Assembly: GCA_947176605.1 (NCBI GenBank)
Contig: CAMWRH010000019.1
Span: forward strand, 1 to 45,763
Source of the DNA: an uncultured Porphyromonadaceae bacterium
GTDB lineage: Bacteria > Bacteroidota > Bacteroidia > Bacteroidales > Muribaculaceae
Direction: 5' to 3'
Length of the DNA: 45,763 nucleotides
Positions 1 to 24,442 of the stretch are shown here, piece after piece. The number at the start of each line of letters is the position of its first letter. Position 1 is the first letter of the stretch. The notes beneath the pieces are model-generated. The model was not told the DNA's origin and did not search any database. It worked only from the letters and a program-made list of their open reading frames with translations. The position numbers and the translations under genes were made by a program.

Positions 1-42
1 GGTTTGGGTTTTGCGGGGTCCTTTCTGGGTTCTCTCGTCGGC

Positions 43-393: not shown

Positions 394-418
394 GTGATGT
401 AATGTTTTTTTGTGTGGT

Positions 419-488: not shown

Positions 489-617
489 CGGACGGTCGGC
501 CGGTTCCGGATGGCTAATATGGCGCTTGTGCGTGGCATGTGTGTGCTTGCGGTGGCGGGTGGTGTGGATGCTGTCGGGACGGCTGGCCGGTGGGTCGGCA
601 GTAATCTCTGTACTGGT

Positions 618-1130
618 ATGATTGGATCTATCTTGGGTGCGGCTGTCTCGGCTGCGGGGAGTATCTTCGGGGGCATTCAGGCTTCGAAGGCTATGCGTAA
701 GGTGAAGGATAATGTTGAGGCTCAGAGGAGCCGCAACAAGGCGTGGTATGAGAGGCGGTATAATGAGGATGCCACTCAGCGTGCGGATGCGCAGCGGATT
801 CTGGCGCGGACTGAGGCGGCGATTCGTGAGAGGAATATGGCGGCGGCCGGGACGCAGGCTGTGATGGGTGGATCGGAGGAGTCGCTTGCGGCTGTTAAGG
901 CCGCCAATAATGAGGCTATGGCGGATGCTGTGTCGCGGATTGTAGCGCAGGGTGAGGCGCGTAAGGATGCTGTGGAAGCGCGGTATCAGCAACGTGAGGC
1001 GGCTCTTGACGAGCAGCTGAATAATCTGGAGACGGGGCGTGCGCAGGGTATCTCGCAGGCTGTGGGCGGTCTGTCGTCGGTGGGTGCGAATCTGGCTGAT
1101 GCTTTTGGTAAGGACGTGAAGGAGGCGTGA
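618..1130 (+). CDS. Putative internal virion / ejection protein, gp14-like (170 aa)
   Basis: I chose the ATG at 618 because the protein then begins MIGSILGAAVSAAGSIFGG, a glycine/alanine-rich hydrophobic start typical of small phage ejection or pilot proteins. The frame stays open upstream to 510, but that part reads as non-protein-like. The hydrophobic N-terminus (residues 1-22) is followed by a long, charged, Ala/Gln/Arg-rich helical region (residues 23-140) and a short Gly/Ser tail. There is no enzymatic motif. The gene is followed after 10 bases by the 1141 gene and then by the giant gene. Three consecutive ejection-type genes next to the portal resemble the gp14-gp15-gp16 arrangement of T7-like phages. 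That comparison rests on layout and composition, not on a detected domain. Confidence 0.7.
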   Translation: MIGSILGAAVSAAGSIFGGIQASKAMRKVKDNVEAQRSRNKAWYERRYNEDATQRADAQRILARTEAAIRERNMAAAGTQAVMGGSEESLAAVKAANNEAMADAVSRIVAQGEARKDAVEARYQQREAALDEQLNNLETGRAQGISQAVGGLSSVGANLADAFGKDVKEA

Positions 1131-1140
1131 GGGCGGCTTT

Positions 1141-2238: not shown

Positions 2239-2371
2239 GATTCGGGGGAGCTTTGTAGAGCGGACGCATGAGTGTGCCTACCTGCAAGGGTCGAGGTGCG
2301 GACTGGCGCCGGGGTGGAATGGTGATTTTATTTTTCTATTGACTTTCTGATTTTTAAGAGGCTGTGTGATT

Positions 2372-5300
2372 ATGGCAGACAATAATGTGAATGGTGTTTC
2401 GGGTGGTAAGAAGTACAGTATCACGACTTCTGACGGTAAGACGCATGATGTGAGTGCGGAGAATGTGGAGAAGTACGGGATGAAGTCGTATGCGTCGGCG
2501 TATGCGGGGGCGACTGTGCATATGCGTGACGCGCAGGGTGCTGATTATGATATTCCTCTGGGGCATTATGATGCTGCTGTGGCGCAGGGCCTTTCTCCTT
2601 ATCTTAAGGATGCGGGGGCGACCGGGGTGGCGGCTAAATCTGCCGGAGCGGCCCGGCAGGTCGCTGAAGCTCCGGCGCAGAACCACGAGTCCCGGGGTGC
2701 TTCGCGTGATGAGGCTCAGGGGTCGGCACGGGGGCAGGCTGAGAATGGCGGTAAGGCAGCCGGTGCTGACGGGGCCGGAAGTGTGGAGGCCAGAAGTGCG
2801 GGTGCCGGGGCAGAGCCGGGGACTGGCGAGAAGGCGGAGGGATGGACTCCGACGTGGCAGGAGAAGCTGCGGATGATGTATGAGATGCAGTTCGGGGGGA
2901 CGGATGTGCGTAAGACCGGCCGTACGGCTGAGGACGGGTATCCGGAGTGGGAGTCGGTGTATTGTCCATCGGTGGATGAGACGGTGGATGCGATGCGGCG
3001 GACTGTGGAGCAGGGTCGGCGTGTGGCTTCGCTGAAGACGCGGAAGGGGCGTGATGAGGCTAAGGCACTGGAGAATGCGGCGCGTGCGGCGGGGGTGCGT
3101 ACGTCGGTGACGGGTCTGACGCCGGGAGGCGTGGCGGCTGATGAGGCGGGAGCCCAGGTGCAGGGGGCGGCAGATGATGGCGCCGGTGTGCTGCTGCATG
3201 GGCGCGGGCCGGTAGCGTATGGTGTCGTGGAGGAGGATGGTGTGCGTAAGACGCAGTGGCTGCTTCCTGACGGCAGGCTTACGACGGATCTTGTGGAGGC
3301 TGATAAGGCTGAGTATGGGGCACGGCGTATGAGGCTTATGAATGAGTTTACGGGGCGTATGAGGGAGAATGGTCTTGATCCGGCGCGGAAGGAGGATGTG
3401 GAGAAGCAGGCTCAGCTGGATTATGAGGCCCCGATTCGTAAGGCTGTGGCGGCTGCTGTGGCGGCGGATGATGAGCGGCGTGCAAAGTCGGATGATGCGT
3501 ATATGGCCAATGCGATGAATATGATCGGTGGCGTGAATGCGCGTCTTGGGCGTCAGGCGGCTACGAAGGAGACCGGCATGGGTGATCTGGTGAAGATTGC
3601 GGAGAGTGCGTTTGAGGGGCTTCCGGCGGGTTACAGGGATGAGCTTGTGGCCGGGTATGCGCGGTATTTTGAGGAGCATAAGGATGAGTTGAAGGGGCGC
3701 AGTGTGGCTGATGCGGCGCGTGATGCTGCGAAGTCGGCGGTGTATGCCCAGGTGCATGAGGCGTATGTGGAGCGTAATATGCCGGAGAGTGGCGGTGAGT
3801 TTCTGCTGCGTAAGATTGTGGAGCTTAATCCGGCTGGGGTGGCGCTGTCGTCGACGATTAATCCGGAGGGGCAGGCTTATGCTGATCTGGATGCGATGGA
3901 GCGTTATGGGTCGGAGCATAAGGGGCTGGATATTACGGGGACGGTGCTTGGGATGGCGTTTGATCCGGTGACGCTGGCTTCGTGGGGTGTGGGTAGCGCG
4001 GCCTCGAAGCTGGTGATGGGTGCCGTTGGAAAGGGTATGGCGCGTAGGGCTGTGTGGCCTGTGGCGGCGCGTGTGGCGGGCGCGCGTCTTGCGGGGCGTG
4101 TGGTCGGGGGCATGGCCGCCGGGGCTGCGAATTTCGGGATGTTTGAGATGTCGAAGGATGCGGAGCGCCAGTTGTATCAGGGTGGTTATGTGAATCCGGA
4201 GTCGGGGAATCTGGAGGATTTCTCGTGGGCTTCGGTGATGCACAGCGGTGTGCATGGTCTTGGCATGGGCGCGGTAACGGGTGCGGTGGCTCCGTTGCTG
4301 GGGAATGTGGCTGACAAGGCGGTGCGTGGCGTGGGCTCGACGGCCGGGAAGGTGGCTTTGCGCACCGGTGAGGTGGCTGTGTCGAAGTTGCTGGAGGGTA
4401 CGGTGTTTGCGGCGCCGGAGATGTATGCTGTGCGGACGATGGGGGATGCTGATTTTGACCGGCTGTATGCGCGTCAGTATGGGTATGACCATATTTCGGA
4501 TGCTGAGGCGCGGGCTGAGGCGCGTAAGGCTGCGCGGGCTGATCTGTGTGGGGATGCGTGGACTGACAGTATGGCGCTGATGATGGGTTTCGGTCTGTCG
4601 CATGCGGTGAAGTCGGCTCCTTCGGTGGTGCGGGGGCTGCGTGCGGTGCAGCCTCGTGTGGATGCTTCGGGGCGTGAGGTGCCTTTGACGCGTGAGGAGC
4701 GTCTACAGAATAACCGGAGTTTTAAGGAGCGTGTGCGCCGGATGCTTGACAAGGAGGGTCCGGAGGGTGTGAAGGCGTTTACGCGTGAGGAGCTTGCTGA
4801 GCTGAAGCGTAAGGGTTACGGTCGGCTCGGGGATCTGTTTGCGTATGATCGGGAGCATGAGTCGCGGCGTGTGAGTGTGCGGCGCGAGGGTGCGGACCTT
4901 ACCGGGGGATTCGGGCTTGCGGAGATTTCGGAGGCTGAGCGTGGCAATGAGGCGTTTGACGGGTATGAGATGATGGAGGCTCTGATGTCGGACGGGAGTG
5001 TGAGTGAGGCTACGCGTGCGAGGGCTTATTATGTACTGACGGGGCGTGTGCTTGTGCCTTCTACGGTATCGGGATGGCGGCGTGAGAATACTGCGGACGG
5101 TGGGATTATCGTAATGGGTGTGAGTCAGTCAGGGAGCGTGGTGACTTCGCGCCGTTTTGATTCGGAGCAGGGTGCGCAGGAGGAGATTGAGCGCATCGGG
5201 CGTCAGGTGGAGCTGAATACGATTGATGTGGGTGAGCAGGCGCGTGTGGCTGAGGCGTCCGGTCGCGTGATGCTTGCCGCTATCAAGGAGGCTTATCCGG

Positions 5301-8300
5301 GTATGCCGGCGGATGGCGTGTATAAGGTGTATGAGCGTGTGAAGGGGGGTAAGGATGAGGTGACGGAGGCTGAGCGGAAGCTGGCGGAGCGGATTGATGA
5401 GGCTGTGGAGCGGATGTCGGGAGCTGGCGTGGGCGATGATGTGAGGCCGGAGAGTATACGTGCGCGTGTGTCGGAGGAGACTGGCGTGAATGTGGATGCG
5501 GCTATCCGTAAGGAGCCGGGTAAGCGTTCGGCTGGGGAGCAGGGGGCTGTGGAACGGTATGTGCGTGAGCTGTTCGGCAGGGATGCCGGGGAGGAAGAGG
5601 CACCGGGTGCCGGGTCGCAGGTGGATGCTTCTTTGGCTGAAGGGATTATGGCTGCTGAGGCTGAGGGGCGTGCGGTGTATGAGCGGGCGGCGGATGGCGA
5701 TGAGTCGGCGGGAGCTGATATGGAGACTATAGGTGCGCGTGTGGCTGAGACGCGTGCGGCGCTGGAGGAGACGCTGGGTGATGAGGCTGACGCTTATATG
5801 TGGCAGGTTGATGAGAATCCGTGGGCTCTGCTGGAGAATCCGGAGTTTTCGGAGGATGTACGCGTGGCGGTAATCGACTATCTGAATGCGAAGAGTGTGA
5901 TGGATGGTGTGATTGGTGGCGCTTCGGAGAGTCTGGAGACTCGTGAGCGGGAGATGTCGAATCTGATCGGTCGGCGGACGCATAGGGATAAGGGTGTGCT
6001 TGTGCCGGCGGTGATGAAGCTGGATGACCGTGAGGTGTATGTGCTTACGGGAGATGTGGTGATGTTGCCCGACGGTAGCGGTGTGGATCCGGAGAGGTCG
6101 AGTGAGCGGCTGACGGTGGTGTATGCTGATACCGGGGAGTATGGGATGACGAGCCGGGATCAGGTGCGTTATGTGCGTGATGCAGTGGATCCGGCGGCGG
6201 AGCTTTCGGAGGCTGTGGAGCGTATGCGTGATGAGGAGGCTGTGCGTCTTGCCGGTATGGCTGGGGCTTCGGAGGGAGCCACTCCGGCCGCTGAAGCTCC
6301 TGCGGCGGATCATGAGGCAGGCGGGGAGGCCACTCCGGTCGCTGAGGCTCCGGCGCAGGACCACGAGGCCCGCGTGGATGGCAACAATGGCACTGAAAAT
6401 ATTCCCGGCAACGGCAACATTGATGCAGAAAATATTCCTGCACCTGCGGATACGGCTCAATACGACCAAGGATATGAATATGGGCTCAACAGCGTACAGA
6501 ATTATTCGGATGAACGACTGAACAGCGAGATTGAGAAACTTAGAGGAGGTGCCGACTTGCTGACAGACTTCGGGCGAGGAATGCTTGAAGCGATGGAGTA
6601 TGCCCAGCAGGAAAGAGCGATGGCGGCTCAGAGCGTTCCTGAAAATGCGGAAAGCGTTCCCAATATTGGCGAAAACACCGAAATTCCTACAGAAAATCGT
6701 GAATCATCCACGGAAAGCGTTCCCAATTCCGCAATTCCTGTAGAAAACGTACAGGAGACGGGCCACGAGACCCACGGGGAGGCTCCGGCGAGTGGAGAAC
6801 AGTTCTCCCCTACTGACGGCACGGCTCCGGCGGCTCCGGCGGCTGATGCGGCTCCGGTATCTGAGGAGACAGGGGGCGCGGTGGAAAGCGCTCTGTCGCG
6901 GATTCCGGTGGATGAGGCATCGGGAGAGCCGATGTTTGAAGCCGTTGAAAAGGATTTGGCCTGGGATGGACTTGTAGAGGCAGTCGGGAGCGAAAAGGAT
7001 GCAGCCGACATAGCACTCGCCCAGATAGAGCAGGCGAACGCAGACCTTGAATCGCTGAAGAAGAAACCGCCTACGATGAAAGCACCCAAACTGAAAGGGT
7101 CTCCCATGGCCATGGCGAAAGCCAAGCAGGACGCGCAGGCGAAATATGCCGAGGAAGTTGCCGATTACAATCAGCGACTCGCTGACACGCAGGCGAAGGC
7201 GAATGCTTGGACTTCAATACTGGGAGTGCATAGAGACCGCACGTCAGAACTTCGGAGACAGCAGGAGGAGGAACGCCGTCGGCGTGACGCAGAATTGCAC
7301 GACCAAGCCGTGGCTCAGTTTGAGGAGGAACAGCGACTGAAAGCCGAGCGTGATGCAGAACAGGGCGCCATAGGCACTCACGCAGTGAATCCGAAGATAA
7401 AGGAGAAATGGGACAAGGCAGACAAGATCAAGGGTAATAGGGATATTGTAATTCTTGCTGATGGGTCTTCATTGGCCGGTCACTACTATTTGATTGGTCC
7501 AGAAGATGCGACAGCCAGCCATGATGTGGATAATGGCTTTGAGCCGACAGAAGGCTTCCCTATAGACAAGAATGGGCAGAGCACAAATGACCGCGATTAC
7601 AAGAGAGATAAGGATGCACAGAGAATGGTGTACTCCATGGGTGATGACTATGACGGAAGAGCTATGCAGAATCCTATCATAGTCAGTCAGGATGGGATTG
7701 TTCTATCAGGCACTAACCGATGGAATTCAGGCATATTGGCTGCTCGGCAAGGAACGGACAAAAAATATCTGGCATACGGACGTGAATTCGGTAGCAAATT
7801 TGGTTTCACTCCTGAGCAGATTGACAGTAAGGAGCATCGACGAGTGGTATTTGTGCCTGACGAGGCACTACCCTATGACGCGACCACCTTCTCACGCTTC
7901 AACGCGCAGGAGATGAAGAGCCAAAGCAAGCCGGAGGCGGCTGTCAAACTTGGCAAGATAGTACCTGACAATGTATTCGGGGACATAGTGACCGACATTG
8001 CCAAGTATGACCGACTCTCGGACTACTACCGGGACGAGGAGGCGGCAGCGCAGGCACTGGGCGCACTGATGCAGGCAGGAGTGATCAACGACAAGCAGCT
8101 GCCCGAACTTCGGACCGGTACGGCACTATCGGCCGCAGGCAAGGAACTTATTGAGAACACACTGATAGGAAAGGTCTTTCAGTCCTCTCCAGATGCAGTG
8201 CGTCAGATAATCTCCATGCCATCTATGAGGGAGACCATAGTAATGGGCCTTGGGGAGATAGCGAGCAACAGCACCCTCGGCAAGCGTGGCTATGACCTCA

Positions 8301-17300: not shown

Positions 17301-20300
17301 TGTTCCTATCCGGCACCACCATCACCAACTCCCTTGTGGAGATATACAACCTTCTGAACTACCTGCGACCGAGGAAACTTGAGGAGTTGGGAATGCCGAC
17401 CTTTGATGCATGGGCAAGTACATTCGCAGTTCACTCAGCAGAACTGGAGGCAGGCGTGACAGGCTCATTTGCTATGAAAGACCGCTTCCGCAGCTTTGAT
17501 AACGTTCCGGAACTCTCGCAACTATACGCTGAAATTGCTGACGTTCGCAACGACACTAACCTTAAACTTCCGAAACCTGCTGTTGACGGAAGAACGGTTA
17601 TTGTTCCTGCAAGCGACTCAATGCAGGAGATCAATGCAGAAATCGTGAAGATGCTTGAAAGCAAGGACGGAAGTTTCTTCGGAATCCATCCGAAAGACCC
17701 GAACCGCGCACCATGGGGACTCCATGCCTCTACACTTTCTGCTAAAGCTGCGGTCAGTCCGCGGCTTATCTTCCCGGATATGGAGGATGATGGAGGGAAG
17801 GTACACGCAGTGTGCGAGAACGTCAAGAAATTCTATGACGAGCAGGGGGAGCAACGCGGAGTGCAACTCATCTTCTGCGAGATGGGTGTACCCGACAAGA
17901 GCAAGAAGTATGACGCATATACCGATATGGTCAACCGCTTCGTGAACGACTACGGCATACCACGCTCAGAAATCGCTTACATACAGGAAGCCAACACCGA
18001 GGAGAAGCGCAAAGACCTCTTCCAAAGGGTGAGGGACGGAAAGGTGCGTATCCTTATCGGAGGGACAAAGAACATGGGAACAGGTGTGAACGTGCAGGAC
18101 CGTATCACCGATATGCACATGCTGACCGTGCCTTGGACACCCTCGGCGCTGGAGCAGTGCATAGGACGCGGCGCGAGGCAGGGCAACCTTGTAGCACGAG
18201 ACTTCATGGGCAACAAGGTGAGAGTGCATTACTACGCCACGGAGGGGAGCCTTGACCTCTACAAATACCAGTTGCTTGATGCAAAGGGTAAGATGTTCAC
18301 GCAGTTCAAGATGGGGACCGTCAACGGAGGGCGTAGTTTTGATGAAGGTTCAGCCGACGAGGACGGCAACATCGACCCGGCAGAAATGGTAGCGATCCTT
18401 TCGGGCAACCCGGTAATATTTGAGCGAGCAAAGCAGGAAAAGGTCGTAAGGAAACTCCGCGCACTTCGCAACGGCTTCGAGCGGGACTATCAGCGCAAGA
18501 AAGCGAAATACACCGAACTGCAGGCGCGTGAAGAAAGACTGGCACGTCTCGTAAGGCTTAACGAGCGAGACCGCGCTGATCTGGCACGCGAGGGGTTCAA
18601 GCCGGACGACAAGGGAGTCTATCCCACCAAATTCAGCGTCATGGAGGGCTACAGCCGCTATGGAGGCAGGACATTCGACAAACCGAAAGAGGGAGGAGAA
18701 TACCTGCTGAAAATGCTTGAAGAAGGTAAAGACGTAACCCTGCAAGGGTTCGGCCAACGTGCGAAAATCGTAACCGTCAATGAGGAAGGCGCAGGAGGAC
18801 TCTTCTCTTCCTACCGTGTGCTTCAGATAGGAGACGGAGAGCGCGACATCAAATACACCGTGCGCCTTTCAGACGATGCGACAGCGGCAGGCACGGCATT
18901 CCGTAACCTGCTGAAACGAATCATTGACAATGGAGAGGTATTCAAGCGCGACCTTGACGAGACCAAGCGACAACTCGCAGGAATGAATATCGGAGACGGT
19001 GTATTTCCTAAGCAGGCGGAACTTGACGAGGCAGTAGCCAAATTCAAGGAACTGAACGCAGAGTATAACAAACTCGGAAAGAAGCCGGATGCAAAGGATG
19101 GCAACAAGTACAGGCTTGTGGAGGAAGGCGCGGAACTCGACTGGCTCGAGAGCCTCGGAGACGATGAACTTGTACACGTCTACCGCAACGTGCAGATATT
19201 GCCGGACGGGAGCATGGCGAGTCCTATGGCCGCCTACAACGTAGAGACCGGGGAGATACGGAGACTGTCGCCGGGGAGATGGAACGGTCCGGAGGAGCGT
19301 CAGATAATCCTTACGCCGGAGCAGGAGGAGAAACTTGCGGCTCTGAAAAGGGACGGCTACGTCATCAACGACAAAGGGAAGCAGGAGGAATTCTATCAGA
19401 TCTCGAAAGAGATGCGCTTCTTCAAGACCAAGAAAGAGGGAGTGAAGCTGCAATTCAACCTTACGCGAGCCGGGAGCAAGGACATGTGGGCAGACTACAA
19501 CCCATACGACCACGCAATCAAGGTAATGCTCAACGACCAGTTCAAGGCGGCCTGGAAGCGACCAAACCTCGTAGTGGTAGAAGCCGTCATGCCCAAATCG
19601 GAGATAGAGGGAGGCTACAAGGCCCCGTATGCGGCCCTGCCCACTGGGGAACATAAGTGGAACAACGGACGCAGCCTGTACCTCTCGCGATGGAGCAAGA
19701 TAGTGAGGATAGTGCCTTTCGCGGAAGTGGCGGCCGACATAGACCGCTACTGGCGAGAGAATCCTTCGGCCTACAGGGGGGCGAAGGTGACGGACTATGA
19801 CCGATTCCAACCGCAGGTGAGGAAGGAACTGGAGAAACTCGGCTACCGATTCGAAGACAAGGGGAAGCGAGGGGAACTGAGCGAGGCCGAACTTCAGAAG
19901 GCATATAAGAGCGAGAACGCGACATACATCACCAACGAGGACATAGAGCGCATGAATGCCGAGATGCAGGAGGCATGGCACGAAACGCCAGTGACCGAGC
20001 GCGCGCTTGCACCAAATCCGAAGAGCGAAGCGGAAGCGGAAAGGCTCGTCATGGCCGACCGGGTGGAGGAACTGGCAGACAAACTGAATACACCTGTAAG
20101 AATCATCATCAATGAGATGGAACTTCAAGCAGTGTCGGAGGACGGCAAACCGAGATACACCCGGAGGGAGCGCAGGGCAAAAGGATGGTGGAGCAGTAAG
20201 ACAGGCGAGGTCGTTGTCGTATTGCCTAACAATGTGAATGTGGCAGACGTGGAGAACACGGTTGTGCATGAGGTTGTCGGGCATAAGGGACTCCGTGCCT

Positions 20301-23300
20301 TTATCGGAGAGGAGCGTTTCGATGAATTCCTTGGCGAGGTCTATGATCACGCCTCCAATCCTATCCGTGCGAAGATAGACAAAGAGACGGACCGTATGGT
20401 GAGTGAAGAAGCCGACCGCCTGCGCGAGCGGAAGAGAAAGGCTCACGAGCGAGCCGGAGAGGATTACAACTCCACTTACTATTCCGATATGGCCGAGGCA
20501 CGAGTTGAAGCGGAGAAGAAGCGCGAAGAGTACCGCCGGGAAGCCACCGAGGAATATATGTCAGACCTCGGAGGACGGATAGGCGATGAGGGTTTTGAGA
20601 AGATGAGCCGAGACGAACTGACGCTATGGGGGAAGATAAAAGCGAAGGTGCAGGGATTCCTTGACAAATTCCTCAAAGGGCTGAAGATAGCGAAGAGCAT
20701 ACGGCTCAATGACAAAGACCTCTCCTATATTCTCTTCAAGTCTTGGAAGAATGCGAGGGAGCGCGGAGTATTCGCGGAGGCAGAGGACGCGGTGAGACGC
20801 AGGAAGAGCGGCTACGATGCAGACGCTCAGACACGTTTCCGTGATCCGGACATGAGTCTTCAGGAGACGGTGACGAAGATGAAGGTGGATGCGATGGCGG
20901 CCAATAAGGATAGCTTTGAGGCAAAGCGTGAGGCGATGAAGGCCATCGGAGGGAATCTGAACAAGCTGCGTCAGGCGATGGCACGGCAGAGGGAATATGA
21001 CATCACGACGGTGAAGAGTGTGAGCGACCTTGCGCGGGTGCTTCTGGATTCGGGTCTGCTGGATGATATGAGCCGACCTGAGATTAAGCGTATACTTGAC
21101 GCCGTGGACAATGCGGTGGGTAAGGAAGATGTGAGCGGTCAAATGGACAAGGTGCTGGACATGATGATAGACAATCAGCTTCGGCACGGCCAGAACACGT
21201 TCGGGCGCGTGGTGTCCACACGCGGGAGCCGTGTGGACGGACGGGGCGTGAAGGTGGCCGGTCAGCTTGATGCTGCCGGGGAGATTTATGCCAAGGTGGT
21301 GAAGCGGGAGATGAAGAGTGTGGCGGAGGCATATGATGCCAATGGCGAACTTCTGGAAGATTGCATTGCCTATAAGATGCAGGACGCATTGAGCCGGATG
21401 GGGAGCGATGACGCATCGATAGCCGAAGAGGCCGGCATCGAGTATCAGGCATTGCAGATAGCGTATTGGCATGCGGACGCAATCAAGGGGAGCAAAGAGG
21501 AAGAGAAGTCGCTACGTGAAAGCCTTAATGCCCTTAAGGCCGACCATGTGGCCGGGCGCCTGAGTGATGATGCATACCGGCAGGCTGTGGAGGCTACGCG
21601 GGAAGCGATCCGGGAGAACCGGATGGAGCGGGTGGAATCCTACAACAGTCTGACGGAGGCTGTGGCAAGTGAGCTGTCGGAGAGCATGGAGCGTGTGAAG
21701 GAATGGCGCGAGGAACAGCGGGAGCGTGTGCGCGAGATACAGCACAATGCTAATTCCGACCTTGAGGGACTCCCGGCTGACGAGCATGTGCAGGAAGGGC
21801 GTATGCAGAAGCTGATGAACAATGACCTTATTCGCTGGCTGCTGGGACCGTTGGGTACGTTTGACCAGATGCTGAGGATGATCGGCTACAAGAATGTGCG
21901 TGGCGAAGGTTATCTCTACAACCGCTTCATGCGCGGATGGGATGAGGCTTCGGGAAAGGAGTTCACCGGATTCCAGAAAAGTATGGAGACTCTTGACAAC
22001 CAGGTAAGGCTGATATTCAGCAATCCTCAATACGGGAAGCTGAAGATGGCGGGGAAGATACGGGAATTCACCGATCTGTTCAAACTGGATCGCGTATTGC
22101 CGGAGATGGAGGTAGAGTTCATGAACGGAGGAAAGATGAAGCCTCACAAGCTCCGACAGGGGAACCTGCTGTACATCTATATGGCCGACAAGATGGCCGA
22201 CGGACGGATGAAGCTGCGCAAGATGGGTATAACCGAGGATACGGTAGAGGCAATAAAACAGCATCTTGACCCGCGCCTTATCGAACTGGCGGACTGGATA
22301 CAGGATGAGTTTATGGTATCGAAGCGGAACGAGTATAACGAGACTCACAAGCGGATGTTTGGCACAGTTATGGATGCCATAGAGCATTACTTTCCGCTGA
22401 AAATCCTTTCGAATTCGAGGGTTGAAGATGTGGATGTGTCAGCCGGGACGCAGGGCGCAGCCATACCTGCCACGATAACTGGCTCGCTTAAGAAGCGCCG
22501 CCGCAATAACCTTGCACTCGACATAATGGGGGCGAATGCGCTGGAGGTATTGGTGGCCCACTTGCAGCAGATGGAGAAATGGAATGCGTATGCGGAGTTC
22601 AACCGGGATCTGAACACGCTGCTGTCGTACAAGCGGTTCCGCAACAAACTGATGAACATGACGACCGTGTATGGCGCGGGCAGGAAGTTATGGAACCGAT
22701 TTGTGGATGTCAGCAAGTTGGCTGCCGGGTCGTACCGACCGACAGTATCGGATCTTGACAAGTCAGCTGTGAACTTCGCCAAAGGAGTGACAGCCGCGAA
22801 GGTGAGCCTACGTCTGCACACGGCGTTAAAGCAGCTGCTGTCTATGCCGGCGTTCCTGTCGGAATGCAGCGTGAGGGATCTGGCCGGAGGGATTGTGAAT
22901 CCGGCAGGGGCATGGAAGTGGGCGATGGAGAACATGCCGCTGTTTGAGAAACGGTGGAAGAGCCGCATGTCGGGCAATCCGCACCTGATGAAGACGGAGC
23001 TTGACTGGAAGATGTGGCGCAACCGTGTGGTGGAAACGGCGAGCCGGATCGGGATGTCGCCGAATGCGTTTGTGGATGCCCTGACAGTGGCGATAGGCTC
23101 ACGGGCGATGTATATGAGCAAGTACCGGAAATACAGGCGCTACGGATACACGGAAGCGGAGGCGCGGGAGCGTGCGCGGCAGGATGCGGAGATACTGTTT
23201 AACCAGACTCAGCAGTCGAGCGAGGGGGCCTTTATGTCGACGATGCAGGCTGATCATTCGTGGGTGAGCACGATGCTGACGGTGTTCCGAAATTCATCGA

Positions 23301-24442
23301 TGGCATATACGCGTCAGCTTCACGATGCGTTACGCAATCTGAAGCATTACGCCACGCCGGGGTATAAGGCGAAATCGATAGAGTTCATGACCAAACAGAT
23401 GGTGCGTGACGGCATTGATGATGCGCGTGCGGCGAGAAACGCACGTGAGGAATACCGACGCGGGATGCGTAGGGACATGGCCCGTGTAGCGGTGTTCGGT
23501 TATGTGATCCAGTTTGTATGGAATATGGGTGCTTACGGGGTGTATGCCCTGCTGGGTGATGACGATGAGCGGAAGCGGAAGAATCTGAAGGATGCTGCGA
23601 TCCACGCGATGTTCGGCGGCCTTGAGGGTCTGACAGCCGGCGATGCCATAAGCGGGGGATTGAATCAGCTGTTCAATTCAGATTCGGAGGTGCGTTCGCT
23701 TGTAAAGGAGATGCCGGCCACTACCGATCTCGAGGAGCTATGGGAGAGTTTCGGCACTGATGAGGTGGAGGCTATGACGGGACTTGTGGAGCTGATGGTG
23801 CAGATGGGAGCGGGCTTCAATCCTCAGACACTGACGGATGCGGTGGTGGCCATCACCGATGCATTTGAGGGTGACAAAGCGGCTCAGCATGAGGCTGCGT
23901 TGCTGATCAGCCGCGTGCTGAGCACTCCTCAGAGTCAGACGGAGGCCCTTTACTTCGATGAGGTCGGGGCTACTGCGGATGAGGCCAAGCGTATGACGGT
24001 GGATGAGCTTGTGGAGCGCTATGCGAAATACAGGCTTCGCCGGAATACGGCGTTTACAGGGTGGATGTATTCGGATGATGCGCGTGATGACGCGATGGAG
24101 CGTCACCGCAAACGTGGGAAGCGGCTTGTGAAGGAGCGGCTTTCGGGGCATGCGAAGAACAGTGAGACGCAGGATGCGCTGCGGGAGTATGAGGAGTACC
24201 GCAAGGGTCTGAAACGAGCCGAGGAATGCTGGGAGCGTGGAGATGAGGAGGGTTACCGCAGGCGTATGGATGCCCTTCGCAAGAAGCATGACGAGGAGCT
24301 GATGGTGCGGACGGGTGTGTATAAGCGGGATATCGAGGAGCTGATGCGGATGTATATGGCGGGAGAGGATCCTGACACGGTGCTGAAGCTGATGGAGGGG
24401 GCTCGGGATACGTACCTTTTGGAAATGAAAAATAAAGACTGA
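2372..24442 (+). CDS. Giant polyvalent internal-virion protein (about 7,356 aa)
   Basis: The frame opens at a GTG at 2366; I prefer the ATG at 2372 (MADNNVNG). Regions by residue: 1-90 N-terminal beta-type domain; 90-155 Ala/Gly linker; 520-755 hydrophobic, membrane-active-looking segment; 1300-1515 repetitive linker; 1543-1660 coiled coil; 1690-2085 DdrB/ParB-like domain (IVLSGTNRW near 1776); 2165-2315 and 2880-3020 BECR-nuclease-like domains; 2726-2853 pyrophosphatase-like domain (DGDNIDVF at 2768); 3740-3895 Gly-rich linker; 3900-4215 adenine-N6 methylase (FLDPSMGNG at 4040, NVPF at 4107); 4734-5300 SNF2-type helicase (GAGKT at 4763, DESH at 4927, QCIGRGARQGN at 5262); 5587-5810 conserved polyvalent-type domain; 5966 HEVVGH, metallopeptidase-like; 6160-7356 helical C-terminus with a NQTQQSSE motif and a late membrane segment. 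This combination defines phage/plasmid polyvalent proteins, which are delivered with DNA to counter host defences. Its place between small ejection proteins and portal suggests virion packaging. That is inference. Confidence 0.93.
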   Translation: MADNNVNGVSGGKKYSITTSDGKTHDVSAENVEKYGMKSYASAYAGATVHMRDAQGADYDIPLGHYDAAVAQGLSPYLKDAGATGVAAKSAGAARQVAEAPAQNHESRGASRDEAQGSARGQAENGGKAAGADGAGSVEARSAGAGAEPGTGEKAEGWTPTWQEKLRMMYEMQFGGTDVRKTGRTAEDGYPEWESVYCPSVDETVDAMRRTVEQGRRVASLKTRKGRDEAKALENAARAAGVRTSVTGLTPGGVAADEAGAQVQGAADDGAGVLLHGRGPVAYGVVEEDGVRKTQWLLPDGRLTTDLVEADKAEYGARRMRLMNEFTGRMRENGLDPARKEDVEKQAQLDYEAPIRKAVAAAVAADDERRAKSDDAYMANAMNMIGGVNARLGRQAATKETGMGDLVKIAESAFEGLPAGYRDELVAGYARYFEEHKDELKGRSVADAARDAAKSAVYAQVHEAYVERNMPESGGEFLLRKIVELNPAGVALSSTINPEGQAYADLDAMERYGSEHKGLDITGTVLGMAFDPVTLASWGVGSAASKLVMGAVGKGMARRAVWPVAARVAGARLAGRVVGGMAAGAANFGMFEMSKDAERQLYQGGYVNPESGNLEDFSWASVMHSGVHGLGMGAVTGAVAPLLGNVADKAVRGVGSTAGKVALRTGEVAVSKLLEGTVFAAPEMYAVRTMGDADFDRLYARQYGYDHISDAEARAEARKAARADLCGDAWTDSMALMMGFGLSHAVKSAPSVVRGLRAVQPRVDASGREVPLTREERLQNNRSFKERVRRMLDKEGPEGVKAFTREELAELKRKGYGRLGDLFAYDREHESRRVSVRREGADLTGGFGLAEISEAERGNEAFDGYEMMEALMSDGSVSEATRARAYYVLTGRVLVPSTVSGWRRENTADGGIIVMGVSQSGSVVTSRRFDSEQGAQEEIERIGRQVELNTIDVGEQARVAEASGRVMLAAIKEAYPGMPADGVYKVYERVKGGKDEVTEAERKLAERIDEAVERMSGAGVGDDVRPESIRARVSEETGVNVDAAIRKEPGKRSAGEQGAVERYVRELFGRDAGEEEAPGAGSQVDASLAEGIMAAEAEGRAVYERAADGDESAGADMETIGARVAETRAALEETLGDEADAYMWQVDENPWALLENPEFSEDVRVAVIDYLNAKSVMDGVIGGASESLETREREMSNLIGRRTHRDKGVLVPAVMKLDDREVYVLTGDVVMLPDGSGVDPERSSERLTVVYADTGEYGMTSRDQVRYVRDAVDPAAELSEAVERMRDEEAVRLAGMAGASEGATPAAEAPAADHEAGGEATPVAEAPAQDHEARVDGNNGTENIPGNGNIDAENIPAPADTAQYDQGYEYGLNSVQNYSDERLNSEIEKLRGGADLLTDFGRGMLEAMEYAQQERAMAAQSVPENAESVPNIGENTEIPTENRESSTESVPNSAIPVENVQETGHETHGEAPASGEQFSPTDGTAPAAPAADAAPVSEETGGAVESALSRIPVDEASGEPMFEAVEKDLAWDGLVEAVGSEKDAADIALAQIEQANADLESLKKKPPTMKAPKLKGSPMAMAKAKQDAQAKYAEEVADYNQRLADTQAKANAWTSILGVHRDRTSELRRQQEEERRRRDAELHDQAVAQFEEEQRLKAERDAEQGAIGTHAVNPKIKEKWDKADKIKGNRDIVILADGSSLAGHYYLIGPEDATASHDVDNGFEPTEGFPIDKNGQSTNDRDYKRDKDAQRMVYSMGDDYDGRAMQNPIIVSQDGIVLSGTNRWNSGILAARQGTDKKYLAYGREFGSKFGFTPEQIDSKEHRRVVFVPDEALPYDATTFSRFNAQEMKSQSKPEAAVKLGKIVPDNVFGDIVTDIAKYDRLSDYYRDEEAAAQALGALMQAGVINDKQLPELRTGTALSAAGKELIENTLIGKVFQSSPDAVRQIISMPSMRETIVMGLGEIASNSTLGKRGYDLSAELSAAVDLVTRAKNASPDVYKEGMPVSPFGRMQGLFDDQYGDSRVTDATTLLLADILNSGKPSELRKILAMYNKQAIEASAGAVDLFSESGKPYTKEEILTSVNELFSNGTAREKQELVDAAIADRKQRVSAEPAERRKGEAVEQAADAGGRSEGSEERAGGNTGVDGEGTDNIPEERITAPLSESETDEYGRPFVISSDGSTTFGDIDAESGLKAAPIRLSVGENRKDNNGTNHGYGLMHIEAGHGEQIKNAGFASVEEFVENVARNYETIREGNRYGNKPTYLLEVKDGHNNTLFIQLSNDGTYWNVNSAGIFRERYSRNKPVVSSLPTIGSSSNAETAEVNHGQNEGAAVTSGNSSETSGGKDNALSANKQEPGVESSLGERIAEADATMNTEPTEEEARKIAISKRNFARENRDESSLRKAVEDCIAGWETGYEPGHEEKYRSSYLKYRAAKELLNELPPAEPEKSRTPEEDASEAQKAAGNYKMEHRKVDGYNISIENPKGSVRRGKDADGTEWETSMQNAPTLSEDKKGSKFSGDGQDNISDSAKSGTGKVILSGKTKNGRKYDVMVAKDETRDGVRKVSLETRFDNGTTGAVRNSFGLPLSFIGSENRAFDVAEGSFNVTGVIVDADGAVRAQLSDGREVAVNDLPADMAGKLGIKVTGEHRGNRLTEAEVVEYEAHVKSQLEAYVVNGMRKRAAIRMLREDIWRHEEVYLAAGYSADEAYARATSLAQGLIEKLTPRKVGGFTIYIENERGSVRSGVDEEEKVWETEMRNDYGFIADAKGTDGDNIDVFLSSDIDGWNGRKVFVVDQYNPDGSFDEHKVMLGFNDREEAFGAYLSNYEEGWEKGRRLECTEVNLEDFERWINSSKRKTKPFAEYASVKPVDEEVNMPTTLQWSNERADNGEPFLIGTNGSIDLVEIEQDVFDKMGIAKAPFRLTPSMVNHVYERHKKELKLKSPEDAVDAILDVMNNFDHVRKGRDNTFIFSVEGARSISARRAVTFVLEFDKGEWLGIKTVGYDRIPNLKELTTLWEKGEGNSSTTGVAPANVSSEQPLQGNKADGIASNQSAVISVGKVNTLSADKQAEIAESSEPYTITPAVYVGKSRGGKPGKETPMHRVTFNRPLTAEQERAVKAFANETMGEKKGRFATKRGWADREAADGSWLFRTEEDARKAGEIIGNEEAVADAQPLTADELRDAVAPADKPKGKKPARPKKAPVNRVSVEDVMTDLSEKGETKLSDHAEPVRKEPETQYEISDDEMNSLADELRDLLGIGEDEGDRSIRFRDPGELTPQERQKIQSAGIRMAMGMIERGVTKFPDLATKMVAMLGDQIRPWLKSFYEGARWTPGYDKYEFTPSEEVAKFDVQNFDKPTYDAIKDAEMRVEERKAQTAAEQAEKELKETRNKQRKENDKQREADTAALAGEAEAVAGEAEAIADSAKDERAVAEASEKVDRALDKINHQLAILGYFERKGKDPVAIAERKAAEAGADLAARLVDELGLDLTDLPKGVTVASADFGDNGGYVRINLPVRKGYEPLRIDIRFDRTDSGSLRLVELTSTLKRGDAQSYIIGADSKVWLSAPKYGELLETIKEQMGKYLPKEEKFEVPAHWHGKTIAELEQMLAEILSKSGSKLGKSFGMDKIARGLSKYIESRKAKEEAPAEAPKEKIVNGYKVGDEVMWDRYGNGKWEKVKIEDFDADGSPIFESVKGIMSEKGDWSRVKPADGIFGEAQRVARTAQEKKRKSRKKDVTLKAEDKVGDLFAGLSETETENKPETTGTNGQRDGNNPSQGVAGGKLPHTVGTDETGADGGLPASGTGPTDKGRGADGKGAGVERGTDGATHGTDADGGLQPRLGNRGRDEGGTDRGGNGTGVERGGASGAGAGSGRGAERGAEGLSKGEPATGSGRGSGTTAVKKPKKPEARYTRNFRYDEQEGNEADTYTPSQRLEANVKAIETLAEVLFGGKPATEEQRAIMSRSRGWGQVDLGKYYDIDHILRITYPSAPINRLAKAIQKLDPQGDKKLFDAIKRASLSSYYTPTPIARAMNTFLSLAGYKGGAFLDPSMGNGMYEGTLPKSIQERTAITGVELDWLSGQLSRMLYPDANVIIGGFEKSGIAPGSFDVVTSNVPFGDIVVNDPSWKNDATPLKRSAQNRIHNYYAVKMLEAARPGGLVAMLTTSAVMDTPSNQNIRAHIADQGEILGAIRLPDNTFQGTGVVTDILFIRKWRDDQDRARTREDAAYKELEQAFLSHFEKTAPNKLDGKEEKVRLNGYFEKNPRNLIGEVQAGNQYGKRDAFGLTSKLSVEEIASEIEKAIKRIVGSRRGSIFNPTRTIREAQHAVREAYKGEGDWVSNGNLVIQDGKVGVLTAKKNEYGEVTRMFEAAKAAPGKKELERTEAMIGVRTAMKQLIAGQIEGAKERNLTALRTELQKAYDNFVGKYGRLQDKENSFILDDIDGYTLQALERWKNGKFEGLSDIFTKNSIKPALKLDGKKTPQEAVALSLAEYGYLRPDYLAKALGEDWAEQCGDFVFLKPNSEDDYATRDEYLSGDVVSKLAEARAAAEKDKAFERNVKALEEVQPERIPFDDIAIHLGARWIPESILNDFVNDLFGIQAVRSNRNRRWDPEKKTYINDQKSGVRYIPETDSFEINIEKKELGGAAQDWETPRKTAKEILQAALEDKTLLIKYKDKEGNEHIDEEQTELANQKIADLRERFESWLPSDPERVETLEQTYNDRFNRTVIRHFDGSHLVVPGLMGKELRPHQKDAVWMLINNRGGIVDHIVGAGKTLVMQSAIMEMRRMGIAKKPMIVALKSTVSQIAREFKEAFPSARVLAPNDSDFKKENRKKFIANISLNDYDCIILSHEQYCMLPHTEEAERAVIDEQLWQLNNMIEYLYGTNDTSQMTKKQIKALEKRRNNLTATLEKRLDRNVDREFCFENLGVDYMFVDESHQFKSLPYVTSYQKVAGLGDAQGSSRAVALLTGIRHLQRMHQGDKGTVFLSGTTITNSLVEIYNLLNYLRPRKLEELGMPTFDAWASTFAVHSAELEAGVTGSFAMKDRFRSFDNVPELSQLYAEIADVRNDTNLKLPKPAVDGRTVIVPASDSMQEINAEIVKMLESKDGSFFGIHPKDPNRAPWGLHASTLSAKAAVSPRLIFPDMEDDGGKVHAVCENVKKFYDEQGEQRGVQLIFCEMGVPDKSKKYDAYTDMVNRFVNDYGIPRSEIAYIQEANTEEKRKDLFQRVRDGKVRILIGGTKNMGTGVNVQDRITDMHMLTVPWTPSALEQCIGRGARQGNLVARDFMGNKVRVHYYATEGSLDLYKYQLLDAKGKMFTQFKMGTVNGGRSFDEGSADEDGNIDPAEMVAILSGNPVIFERAKQEKVVRKLRALRNGFERDYQRKKAKYTELQAREERLARLVRLNERDRADLAREGFKPDDKGVYPTKFSVMEGYSRYGGRTFDKPKEGGEYLLKMLEEGKDVTLQGFGQRAKIVTVNEEGAGGLFSSYRVLQIGDGERDIKYTVRLSDDATAAGTAFRNLLKRIIDNGEVFKRDLDETKRQLAGMNIGDGVFPKQAELDEAVAKFKELNAEYNKLGKKPDAKDGNKYRLVEEGAELDWLESLGDDELVHVYRNVQILPDGSMASPMAAYNVETGEIRRLSPGRWNGPEERQIILTPEQEEKLAALKRDGYVINDKGKQEEFYQISKEMRFFKTKKEGVKLQFNLTRAGSKDMWADYNPYDHAIKVMLNDQFKAAWKRPNLVVVEAVMPKSEIEGGYKAPYAALPTGEHKWNNGRSLYLSRWSKIVRIVPFAEVAADIDRYWRENPSAYRGAKVTDYDRFQPQVRKELEKLGYRFEDKGKRGELSEAELQKAYKSENATYITNEDIERMNAEMQEAWHETPVTERALAPNPKSEAEAERLVMADRVEELADKLNTPVRIIINEMELQAVSEDGKPRYTRRERRAKGWWSSKTGEVVVVLPNNVNVADVENTVVHEVVGHKGLRAFIGEERFDEFLGEVYDHASNPIRAKIDKETDRMVSEEADRLRERKRKAHERAGEDYNSTYYSDMAEARVEAEKKREEYRREATEEYMSDLGGRIGDEGFEKMSRDELTLWGKIKAKVQGFLDKFLKGLKIAKSIRLNDKDLSYILFKSWKNARERGVFAEAEDAVRRRKSGYDADAQTRFRDPDMSLQETVTKMKVDAMAANKDSFEAKREAMKAIGGNLNKLRQAMARQREYDITTVKSVSDLARVLLDSGLLDDMSRPEIKRILDAVDNAVGKEDVSGQMDKVLDMMIDNQLRHGQNTFGRVVSTRGSRVDGRGVKVAGQLDAAGEIYAKVVKREMKSVAEAYDANGELLEDCIAYKMQDALSRMGSDDASIAEEAGIEYQALQIAYWHADAIKGSKEEEKSLRESLNALKADHVAGRLSDDAYRQAVEATREAIRENRMERVESYNSLTEAVASELSESMERVKEWREEQRERVREIQHNANSDLEGLPADEHVQEGRMQKLMNNDLIRWLLGPLGTFDQMLRMIGYKNVRGEGYLYNRFMRGWDEASGKEFTGFQKSMETLDNQVRLIFSNPQYGKLKMAGKIREFTDLFKLDRVLPEMEVEFMNGGKMKPHKLRQGNLLYIYMADKMADGRMKLRKMGITEDTVEAIKQHLDPRLIELADWIQDEFMVSKRNEYNETHKRMFGTVMDAIEHYFPLKILSNSRVEDVDVSAGTQGAAIPATITGSLKKRRRNNLALDIMGANALEVLVAHLQQMEKWNAYAEFNRDLNTLLSYKRFRNKLMNMTTVYGAGRKLWNRFVDVSKLAAGSYRPTVSDLDKSAVNFAKGVTAAKVSLRLHTALKQLLSMPAFLSECSVRDLAGGIVNPAGAWKWAMENMPLFEKRWKSRMSGNPHLMKTELDWKMWRNRVVETASRIGMSPNAFVDALTVAIGSRAMYMSKYRKYRRYGYTEAEARERARQDAEILFNQTQQSSEGAFMSTMQADHSWVSTMLTVFRNSSMAYTRQLHDALRNLKHYATPGYKAKSIEFMTKQMVRDGIDDARAARNAREEYRRGMRRDMARVAVFGYVIQFVWNMGAYGVYALLGDDDERKRKNLKDAAIHAMFGGLEGLTAGDAISGGLNQLFNSDSEVRSLVKEMPATTDLEELWESFGTDEVEAMTGLVELMVQMGAGFNPQTLTDAVVAITDAFEGDKAAQHEAALLISRVLSTPQSQTEALYFDEVGATADEAKRMTVDELVERYAKYRLRRNTAFTGWMYSDDARDDAMERHRKRGKRLVKERLSGHAKNSETQDALREYEEYRKGLKRAEECWERGDEEGYRRRMDALRKKHDEELMVRTGVYKRDIEELMRMYMAGEDPDTVLKLMEGARDTYLLEMKNKD
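2661..2706 (+). repeat. In-frame copy of the dispersed repeat inside the giant gene
   Basis: This stretch reads tcgctgaagctccggcgcag followed by aaccacgagtcccggggtgc, closely matching the intergenic element (tcgctgaagctcgggcgcgg, then gactacgaggcccgggg). Translated in the gene's frame it gives VAEAPAQNHESRGAS. The intergenic copies in the same frame read FAEARARDYEARGGA. It sits in an Ala/Gly-rich linker. Confidence 0.6.
6291..6375 (+). repeat. Two further in-frame copies of the dispersed repeat in the giant gene
   Basis: Two adjacent copies encode AAEAPAADHEAGGEA and VAEAPAQDHEARVDG. They lie in the linker where codon use changes, about residues 1303-1340. A weaker third trace follows near 6762-6795 (GHETHGEAPA). 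Confidence 0.55.
8631..8843 (+). CDS. Overprinted small ORF inside the giant gene (70 aa, uncertain)
   Basis: This 70-residue ORF lies in the +1 frame relative to the giant gene, starting at an ATG (MEQQEKNRN) and ending in TAA. Its residue use looks natural, including KARQLNKLRMLADAVKAV and EEIPEWMEKAPIIYRRKG. Over the same bases the giant protein's own frame is a low-complexity Glu/Gly/Ala linker between the ParB-like and first BECR-like domains. I do not recognise the family. It may be an expressed overlapping gene, the remnant of a separate gene absorbed by fusion, or a chance frame. The first two are favoured only by composition. Confidence 0.25.
   Translation: MEQQEKNRNLSTQPSPTGNRGFQPNRRSVEKARQLNKLRMLADAVKAVRNEPEEIPEWMEKAPIIYRRKG
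13653..14057 (+). CDS. Overprinted ORF inside the giant gene (134 aa)
   Basis: This 134-residue ORF is in the +1 frame relative to the giant gene, starting MDNEMAIIQAKEWLEEN and ending AAEVELLP before TAA. It reads as a normal acidic, helical, globular protein: Trp, Leu, Met and Glu are well mixed, with motifs such as HTPWALMRLELMEDYRPQEL and APEWSVEELLEQALDQG. The giant frame over the same bases is a Gly/Thr/Asp-rich linker of low complexity, just before the methylase domain. This is the reverse of what a chance shadow frame should look like. The upstream sequence offers no strong Shine-Dalgarno, which is normal for Bacteroidetes. It resembles small proteins encoded beside methylase/helicase genes on Bacteroidetes mobile elements, but I cannot name a family. 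Expression is unproven. Confidence 0.45.
   Translation: MDNEMAIIQAKEWLEENSHTPWALMRLELMEDYRPQELDRLIREGVLMGKVQEWSEELTERHMELMRTGDYNHASEIGDVMRAELIEEAMAPEWSVEELLEQALDQGVVLSEEQKDFLRENLPPGLAAEVELLP

What the first reader, a model, noticed from the sequence alone, without database searches (positions are those of the whole stretch)
2372..24442. A 22-kb gene fusing an internal-virion protein with a full polyvalent anti-host cassette
One open frame links hydrophobic, ejection-type ends to ParB-like, two BECR-nuclease-like, pyrophosphatase-like, N6-methylase, SNF2-helicase and metallopeptidase-like domains. It lies between small ejection proteins and the portal, as the large internal protein does in T7-like phages. 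Polyvalent proteins are established as cargo that enters the cell with phage or plasmid DNA. Here the cargo appears to be built into the injection apparatus itself, at about 7,356 residues. This is far larger than T7 gp16 or the N4 virion RNA polymerase.
Basis: partly seen in the sequence, partly recalled or inferred. Interest (0 to 1): 0.85.

Follow-up and report, generated by a model that had tools for sequence, protein, structure and literature searches.

The report
Giant phage protein with swappable payload
A phage gene encodes one 7,356-residue protein that is predicted to ride in the virion and enter the cell with the DNA, and its relatives show that the DNA methylase-helicase block in its middle is exchanged as a unit, which would let such phages change how they evade host restriction.

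Summary
The frame is real: 2372-24442(+), 7,356 aa, no stop; 309 of 338 listed relatives are 6,000-7,129 aa long. The domain list largely holds: InPase (plus a truncated copy), N6-methylase and SNF2 helicase (DarB-like) are clear; ParB-like, two BECR-like and a zincin are likely. The kind is known: Bcep22-like podophages carry giant DarB proteins, and JC1 gp69 (4,515 aa) was found in virions. So cargo inside a giant virion protein is not new. That this one is ejected is likely but untested; neither end matches T7 gp16 or N4 gp50 by profile. New here: the methylase-helicase cassette (about residues 3700-5578) sits in an exchangeable slot. Cassettes of 308 full-length proteins form two classes (203 and 105), about 25-30% identical to each other. 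Of 7,679 pairs whose two ends are >=85% identical, 3,717 have cassettes <=60% identical; one pair is 99-100% identical in all six other modules. Isolates BKO1-TP3 and BS-TP4 differ in the same slot. Some relatives have none of these cassettes. One cassette locus was found in each of 5 phage records, so exchange between phages is the likely source.

The parts
510..1130 (+). 206-aa small protein, first of the small-medium-giant trio; candidate ejection protein
   Evidence: homologs in 12 other loci (isolates, IMG/VR contigs, family genomes), 37-65% identity; Pfam T7_gp14 only E 0.038, below cutoff; no profile match to T7 gp14 or N4 gp52
1141..2238 (+). 365-aa protein, second of the trio
   Evidence: homologs in the same place in related loci; no family match
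2366..24442 (+). giant polyvalent protein, 7,358 aa from GTG 2366 or 7,356 aa from ATG 2372
2996..6265 (+). conserved N end, residues 211-1300, with a Gly/Ala-rich stretch around 500-760
   Evidence: measured in 279 full-length relatives, best identity about 56%; AF2 model poor
7403..8665 (+). ParB-like module (DdrB type), residues 1680-2100
   Evidence: weak; 85% identical to P0023, which lists PF18763
8843..9325 (+). BECR-like module 1, residues 2160-2320
   Evidence: profile match to module 2, probability 98.6; 95% identical in P0014 although its ends are 51-62%
9740..9883 (+). truncated InPase copy, residues 2459-2506
   Evidence: PF18823 positions 1-48 of 135, E 8e-15
10541..10912 (+). 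InPase domain, residues 2726-2849
   Evidence: PF18823 E 4.7e-56
11018..11425 (+). BECR-like module 2, residues 2885-3020
   Evidence: PBECR3 E 5.5e-4, below cutoff; 93% identical in P0051 although its ends are 44-56%
11603..12625 (+). conserved unnamed region in front of the cassette, residues 3080-3420
   Evidence: covered to 60% or more in 330 of 338 relatives
13463..19099 (+). exchangeable methylase-helicase cassette, about residues 3700-5578 (edges taken from the P0203/P0208 alignment and carried over to the window by eye)
14414..15001 (+). N6-adenine methylase core (DPSMGNG, NVPF), residues 4017-4212
   Evidence: PF02384 E 3e-12; motifs
16580..18184 (+). SNF2-type helicase core (GAGKT, DESH), residues 4739-5273
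19988..20845 (+). zincin-like metallopeptidase module, residues 5875-6160, HEVVGH at 5968
20963..24439 (+). conserved helical C end, residues 6200-7358
   Evidence: AF2 pLDDT 71.7, pTM 0.63; fold matches among long viral proteins
24449..26461 (+). portal protein, P22-like
   Evidence: PF16510 E 2.3e-39; phrog_156 E 1.7e-92
26535..28655 (-). 706-aa conserved gene, possibly the terminase
   Evidence: homologs in 12 other loci, 39-68%; no Pfam match at E 0.001; the isolates' records call their homologs 'tail spike protein' while a structural note in them names a terminase
30229..31752 (+). major capsid protein, SU10 type
   Evidence: PF17236 E 1.4e-10

Best explanation
The gene encodes a giant DarB-type polyvalent protein that is likely packed in the virion and ejected with the DNA, and relatives show that the methylase-helicase cassette in its middle is exchanged as a block, which would let such phages change how incoming DNA is protected from host restriction. 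Shown here: the frame, the main domains, the setting among virion genes, the conserved ends, and the cassette exchange at protein and DNA level. Inferred: (1) the conserved N and C ends take the protein into the head and out through the portal, helped by the 206-aa and 365-aa neighbours; (2) the zincin next to the C end cuts the cargo free; (3) in the cell the methylase-helicase protects the DNA as P1 DarB does against type I enzymes, while the ParB-like, BECR-like and InPase domains act on host nucleic acids or nucleotides; (4) recombination in the flanking conserved regions, during co-infection or with resident prophages, swaps the cassette.
For: Frame and family. Domains. Setting: portal and capsid genes and the same gene order in isolates BKO1-TP3 and BS-TP4. 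C end: the model matches 75 viral predicted structures at E <= 0.001. Exchange: cassette identity to the window is 25-30% in 202, 70-95% in 104 and 20-25% in 1 of 307 full-length relatives, with none between 30 and 70%; two clusters, 203 and 105; 3,717 of 7,679 pairs with both ends >=85% have cassettes <=60%; 2,705 of 5,725 pairs with ends >=95% likewise, their ParB, InPase, front-region and zincin medians being 94-99%; P0203 and P0208 are 99-100% identical in the six other modules measured and 29% in the cassette, with sharp edges; the class changes 38 times on a tree of the ends of 267 proteins, against a mean of 70 for 50 label shuffles; DNA of contig L062 aligns with L063, L064 and L065 on both sides of a 5.8-6.1 kb gap and resumes at the same base 16496 of L062 in all three; BKO1-TP3 vs BS-TP4: 78% and 62% identity on the two sides, no blastp alignment over about 1,700 residues between, with SNF2 versus strawberry-notch helicases inside. 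Precedent for a virion-borne DarB giant: PMC9144972 (passages).
Against: No virion proteomics for this family. No sequence-profile link of the ends to known ejection proteins. The N-end model is poor and the C end has no solved relative. The relatives are mostly predicted proteins of public collections, chosen as best matches to three regions of this protein, with the best 120 rows per search listed, so pair counts are not a random sample and few lineages weigh heavily: at ends >=85% only 6 of 15 multi-member clusters hold both cassette classes, at >=95% 3 of 14. The slot is not always filled by a known cassette: 4 of 343 proteins, 2 of 6 family-genome giants (G002, G135) and all 11 IMG/VR or Prevotellaceae stretches checked show no match to the three cassettes (most of those stretches are partial). 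The left flank of L062 has further unaligned gaps, so the cassette is not the only variable part. In BKO1-TP3 Pfam finds the helicase but not the methylase at E 0.001; its methylase part is inferred from the 28% alignment to the window. The zincin module did not match N4 gp50's peptidase region by profile. Antirestriction activity is untested.
Confidence: 0.73

Rival explanations
1. The protein is packed in the virion, but its ends are part of the trans-envelope conduit itself, as with T7 gp16: the cargo is built into the injection machine.
Confidence: 0.3
2. The protein is made late in infection and works in the producing cell, or is cut before packaging so that only part enters virions.
For: P1 DdrB is processed before packaging (PMC5512222, passages); a zincin-like module with HExxH lies beside the C end.
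Against: JC1 gp69 was detected in purified virions with 15.6% coverage (PMC9144972, passages), although that does not show it is uncut and it is only a distant relative; the domain types here are those that Iyer et al. assign to virion-delivered proteins.
Confidence: 0.2
3. The cassette differences arise by switching within one phage genome (inversion or a silent copy), a phase-variable antirestriction system.
For: Two discrete classes coexist in near-identical proteins.
Against: One cassette locus per record in 5 of 5 phage records searched, with a query that detects both classes (the four IMG/VR records may be fragments, BKO1-TP3 is given as a complete genome); one imperfect inverted pair only (29 nt, 76%) around the window cassette.
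Confidence: 0.06
4. The frame or the mosaic is an assembly artefact.
For: The window is one contig of a draft genome, and most relatives come from assemblies.
Against: 309 of 338 relatives have comparable length; the exchange is also seen between two phages deposited as complete genomes and in several end-type clusters.
Confidence: 0.02

Closest known systems
Bcep22-like giant DarB proteins (Bcep22 gp75, BcepIL02 gp70 4,667 aa, JC1 gp69 4,515 aa)
   Same: Giant single protein with a DarB methylase-helicase core among late genes; core 29% identical to BcepIL02 over window residues 3843-5313; JC1 gp69 found in virions (PMC9144972, passages)
   Different: This one is 1.6 times longer, has ParB-like, BECR-like, InPase and zincin-like modules around the core, ends unrelated by profile, and lies before the portal rather than before the lysis genes
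Bacteroides phage BKO1-TP3 gp55 (5,553 aa) and BS-TP4 gp3 (5,391 aa)
   Same: Same trio, portal and reverse-strand 706-aa homolog; InPase, zincin and part of the N end homologous
   Different: C end and most of the N end not recognisably related; BKO1-TP3 carries the other cassette class, BS-TP4 a strawberry-notch type
Polyvalent proteins and their methylase-SNF2 dyad (Iyer et al. 2017, PMC5512222)
   Same: Same domain vocabulary and late-gene setting; module mosaicism already noted there for the Helicobacter protein jhp1044
   Different: Exchange of a whole methylase-helicase cassette between near-identical giants was not in the passages read
N4 virion RNA polymerase gp50 (3,500 aa) and T7 gp16 (1,318 aa)
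   Same: Works like: last of a small-medium-giant gene trio, giant multi-domain protein meant to cross the envelope
   Different: No sequence-profile relation of the ends; no RNA polymerase domain found
P1 DarB
   Same: Methylase-helicase antirestriction protein carried in the head (PMC5512222, passages)
   Different: DarB is a separate, smaller protein (recalled); here the core is one module of a giant

Membership tests
Polyvalent proteins (Iyer et al. 2017) | two or more disparate effector domains in one polypeptide | tested here: met
   InPase, N6_Mtase, SNF2 and Helicase_C above cutoff
Polyvalent proteins (Iyer et al. 2017) | phage type lies next to virion genes | tested here: met
   portal gene starts 7 bases after the giant gene's last base; capsid gene nearby
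Polyvalent proteins (Iyer et al. 2017) | delivered into the new host with the DNA | not testable with these tools
   needs virion proteomics or a translocation assay
DarB-like antirestriction proteins | methylase-SNF2 core homologous to the DarB-like family | tested here: met
   phrog_10089 E 1.2e-244 and 4.5e-200
DarB-like antirestriction proteins | protects phage DNA against type I restriction | not testable with these tools
   the methylase part weakly matches EcoKI M by sequence (E 0.009), which is no test of function
Bcep22-like giant DarB virion proteins | giant DarB protein among late genes | tested here: met
Bcep22-like giant DarB virion proteins | short-tailed virion | not testable with these tools
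   P22-like portal and a tail-needle match E 8.7e-6 of a coiled 407-aa protein fit; a weak tape-measure match (E 0.023) of a 156-aa ORF is the only hint otherwise; half of the phage genome is not in the window
Bcep22-like giant DarB virion proteins | N-terminal cell-wall hydrolase (lytic transglycosylase in Bcep22, from PMC6630229) | tested here: inconclusive
   no Pfam match above cutoff in residues 1-1689
Bcep22-like giant DarB virion proteins | ends homologous to BcepIL02 gp70 | tested here: not met
   hhalign probabilities under 1% for both ends; blastp without low-complexity filter shows a 25% stretch at 890-1088 (E 5e-5) that the profile does not bear out
T7 gp16 / N4 gp50 ejection proteins | last gene of a small-medium-giant internal-protein trio | tested here: met
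   gene order only
T7 gp16 / N4 gp50 ejection proteins | sequence or fold homology of the ends | tested here: inconclusive
   no profile match; weak 8vb2_A structural match
T7 gp16 / N4 gp50 ejection proteins | virion RNA polymerase domain (N4 type) | tested here: not met
   none in Pfam or PHROGs scans at E 0.1

The most novel reading that the evidence does not exclude
These phages carry a payload bay inside a giant injected protein: constant ends deliver it, and one internal slot takes any of at least three different methylase-helicase cassettes, so that the antirestriction weapon injected with the DNA is swapped as a unit to follow the restriction types of the host population, in the way hosts swap type I specificity genes.
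Probability: 0.4. Interest if true: 0.82.

Novelty: new variant of a known kind. Interest (0 to 1): 0.62.

Why it matters
If right, the anti-restriction function of a phage can be exchanged by recombination inside a virion protein without touching its delivery ends. That gives a concrete, testable link between the restriction repertoire of Bacteroidales hosts and phage genotype. The conserved C end, whose predicted fold recurs in many long phage proteins and has no solved relative here, is a good target for learning how proteins of 800 kDa could be packed and ejected.

Tried and rejected
Frameshift or chance frame: rejected, 309 of 338 relatives >=6,000 aa. T7 gp16, N4 gp50, BcepIL02 and BF1-TP2 as homologs of the ends: no profile match; BKO1-TP3 and BS-TP4 match part of the N end only. 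Phase variation: one cassette locus per record in 5 of 5 phage records; one imperfect inverted pair.

Cleavage-site motif: [TIFLMNQV][RK][FY]R[DLE] sits at three module borders of the window protein (3266, 5580, 6156; 7 of 1,000 shuffles reach three); 1.84 per full-length relative against 0.28 shuffled. It was designed after looking at this protein. It is absent from BKO1-TP3, BS-TP4, BcepIL02 and 10 of 11 further relatives tested, and present three times in BF1-TP2. Kept as a lead only; shared ancestry may explain the positions.

Literature: passages read in PMC5512222, PMC9144972, PMC6630229 and PMC12629997 (the last has no occurrence of darb or polyvalent); abstract and outline of PMC12633501; others seen only as search listings. 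Searches listed no paper that I recognised from title and abstract start as describing this Bacteroidales family or a cassette exchange in it; the listings were capped and the library lacks most subscription journals. The Bcep22/BcepIL02 paper was not held, so what is said of Bcep22 comes from papers citing it. My notebook calls some IMG/VR relatives 'rumen'; no call shows their source, and the word is dropped here.

Full report
1. What is there. Window 2366-24442(+) is one open frame of 7,358 codons from GTG, or 7,356 from the ATG at 2372, 814 kDa. The window is a whole 45,763-bp contig of a 2.89-Mb draft genome. Upstream lie genes for 206 and 365 aa; downstream a P22-like portal, a reverse-strand 706-aa gene, and an SU10-type capsid protein.

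2. It is not a chance frame. Three searches with different regions of the protein listed 338 distinct relatives (the best 120 rows each; 381, 625 and 627 passed the threshold among those scored), 4,077-7,129 aa long, 309 of at least 6,000 aa. None is longer than this one. The few named relatives come from Muribaculaceae, Duncaniella, Prevotellamassilia, Bacteroides and other Bacteroidales and Prevotellaceae; the window's host is thus likely a Bacteroidales bacterium. In 149 genomes of the window's family, 13 (the window's own included) have a C-end match, several only short pieces.

3. Anatomy (residues from GTG). N end 211-1300; ParB-like 1680-2100; BECR-like 2160-2320; truncated InPase 2459-2506; InPase 2726-2849; BECR-like 2885-3020; a conserved unnamed region 3080-3420; methylase 4017-4212 and SNF2-type helicase 4739-5273 inside a cassette of about 3700-5578; zincin-like 5875-6160 with HEVVGH; C end 6200-7358. 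The two BECR-like modules match each other by profile (probability 98.6); only the second reaches PBECR3, below its cutoff. DPSMGNG, NVPF, GAGKT, DESH and HEVVGH are present (their reading as methylase, helicase and zincin motifs is recalled). Among 309 full-length relatives GxGKT is found in 309, N[VPL]PF in 301, DE[SAC]H in 308 and an HExxH-type pattern in 309 (whole-protein matches).

4. Setting. The Bacteroides phages BKO1-TP3 and BS-TP4 have the same order: small, medium, giant (5,553 and 5,391 aa), portal, reverse-strand homolog of the 706-aa gene. In three relatives a homolog (60-62%) of the gene that the BKO1-TP3 record calls integrase lies about 1.0-1.6 kb upstream of the small protein; in one of them, G002, bat-operon-type and TonB-receptor genes lie some kilobases further upstream. 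This points to temperate phages; Pfam did not confirm the integrase name. The trio order equals N4 gp52-gp51-gp50 and T7 gp14-gp15-gp16. The place before the portal is not T7's.

6. The exchangeable cassette. Identity of this protein to its best relatives is at most about 56% for the N end (211-1300) and 60% for the C end, but reaches 93-96% in single inner modules of proteins whose ends are 40-62% identical: P0023 (cassette 81, following region 96, zincin 94, ends 40-43), P0005 (cassette 94), P0014 (BECR 1 95), P0051 (BECR 2 93). Among 308 cassettes there are two clusters, 203 and 105; the window's identity to 307 others is 20-30% (203) or 70-95% (104), with none between. Of 7,679 pairs with both ends at least 85% identical, 3,717 have cassettes at most 60% identical; the same criterion gives 0 of 7,466 pairs for ParB, 8 of 7,579 for InPase, 28 of 7,675 for the front region and 79 of 7,537 for the zincin. 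The reverse is rarer: of 3,727 pairs with both ends at most 60% identical, 30 have cassettes at least 85% identical. P0203 and P0208 are 99-100% identical in the six other modules measured and 29% in the cassette; the change-over is sharp at both edges. On a tree of the ends (267 proteins, FastTree) the class changes at least 38 times by parsimony, against 70 on average for 50 shuffles of the labels; near-identical tips are poorly resolved, so a firmer guide is the number of end-type clusters with both classes: 6 of 15 multi-member clusters at 85%, 3 of 14 at 95%.

7. DNA and isolates. Contig L062 (window-type class) aligns with L063, L064 and L065 (other class) up to about base 10,370-10,720 and again from base 16,496 in all three, with no block of 150 bases or more between; there are other unaligned stretches further upstream, so the N-terminal half varies too. 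The proteins of BKO1-TP3 and BS-TP4 are 78% identical over 71-2594 and 62% over 4309-5547 of BKO1-TP3, with no blastp alignment between. Inside, Pfam finds an SNF2-type helicase in BKO1-TP3 and an N6-methylase with a strawberry-notch helicase in BS-TP4. Over 343 proteins compared (338 relatives, the window, three Bacteroides phages, BcepIL02), the best-matching cassette is the BKO1 class in 221, the window class in 115 at 45% identity or more and in BcepIL02 at 30%, the BS-TP4 class in 2, and none in 4.

8. The slot is not always so filled. Of six giants in family genomes, four (G051, G081, G090, G102) carry the BKO1 class and two (G002, G135) match none of the three cassettes at E 1e-5; neither do the 11 IMG/VR or Prevotellaceae stretches checked, nor BF1-TP2 (nearly all of the 11 are cut at one end). 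Four of those relatives were scanned and show InPase, ART-PolyVal, LPD13, LPD23 or PBECR3.

9. Source of the exchange. In 5 of 5 phage records searched there is one cassette locus, and only one imperfect inverted pair near it in the window. Recombination between phages or with resident prophages is therefore the likely route. The window class scores higher against stand-alone DarB-like proteins of 1,940-2,026 aa in related host genomes (main segments 34-35%, 562-599 bits) than the other class does (26-28%, 301-333 bits), so the classes look like old, separate lineages.

10. What is known. Iyer et al. 2017 (PMC5512222, passages) defined polyvalent proteins, the methylase-SNF2 dyad, the DdrB-ParB, PBECR and InPase domains and the idea of zincin processing, and noted mosaicism in one Helicobacter protein. 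JC1 gp69, a 4,515-aa DarB-like protein, was detected in virions with 51 unique peptides (PMC9144972, passages). N4 gp50 is described as beads-on-a-string cargo that passes a channel of about 35 A (PMC12633501, abstract). The length (longest of the 339 compared) and above all the block exchange of the antirestriction cassette are what this case adds; ten literature searches listed no report of it that I recognised.

11. Verdict. A real, intact-looking gene of a known kind with a new twist. My estimates: virion carriage and injection likely (about 0.8), antirestriction by the cassette likely (about 0.7); the exchange is shown by sequence; its purpose (following host restriction types) is open.

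Noticed in passing
G000 contig C29 (L002, L008): The same genome holds a second, diverged portal (51%), 706-aa-gene homolog (59%) and capsid (56%) in another order, while the C-end search found only the window's own giant: another phage or a remnant.
   Followed up: partly
window 12161-12175, 19103-19117, 20831-20845 (residues 3266, 5580, 6156): Motif [TIFLMNQV][RK][FY]R[DLE] at three module borders, at similar places in many relatives but absent in others: possible processing sites, designed post hoc.
   Followed up: partly
window 35025-41579: 2,184-aa protein with CotH-kinase (E 7.9e-10) and sub-cutoff Laminin_G_3 and LRR matches, perhaps a tail or adhesion protein.
   Followed up: no
L003 37208-38698, L004 35987-37477: Both isolate records annotate a reverse transcriptase behind the large tail-region protein, as in diversity-generating retroelements (recalled); none turned up among the window genes scanned with PHROGs and Pfam.
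   Followed up: no
L012 13159-15933, L013 13187-16444: Two IMG/VR relatives have an extra 924-aa or 1,085-aa frame between the giant gene and the next 700-aa frame.
   Followed up: no
L056 (G090:C1): The giant gene is split into frames of 3,900 and 2,499 aa in one genome; break or assembly error, left as it is.
   Followed up: no
L068, L069, L070: Host genomes of the family carry stand-alone DarB-like proteins of 1,940-2,026 aa that score higher against the window's cassette class than against the other, possibly of conjugative elements.
   Followed up: partly
L013, residues 4005-4147 of the frame 2-13183: Weak cyclodipeptide-synthase match (E 0.0056, below cutoff) near the end of a relative's giant protein.
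   Followed up: no
L053/L054 (G002) and L059/L060 (G135): Giants of 5,480 and 5,769 aa without a match to any of the three cassettes; what fills their middle was not examined.
   Followed up: no
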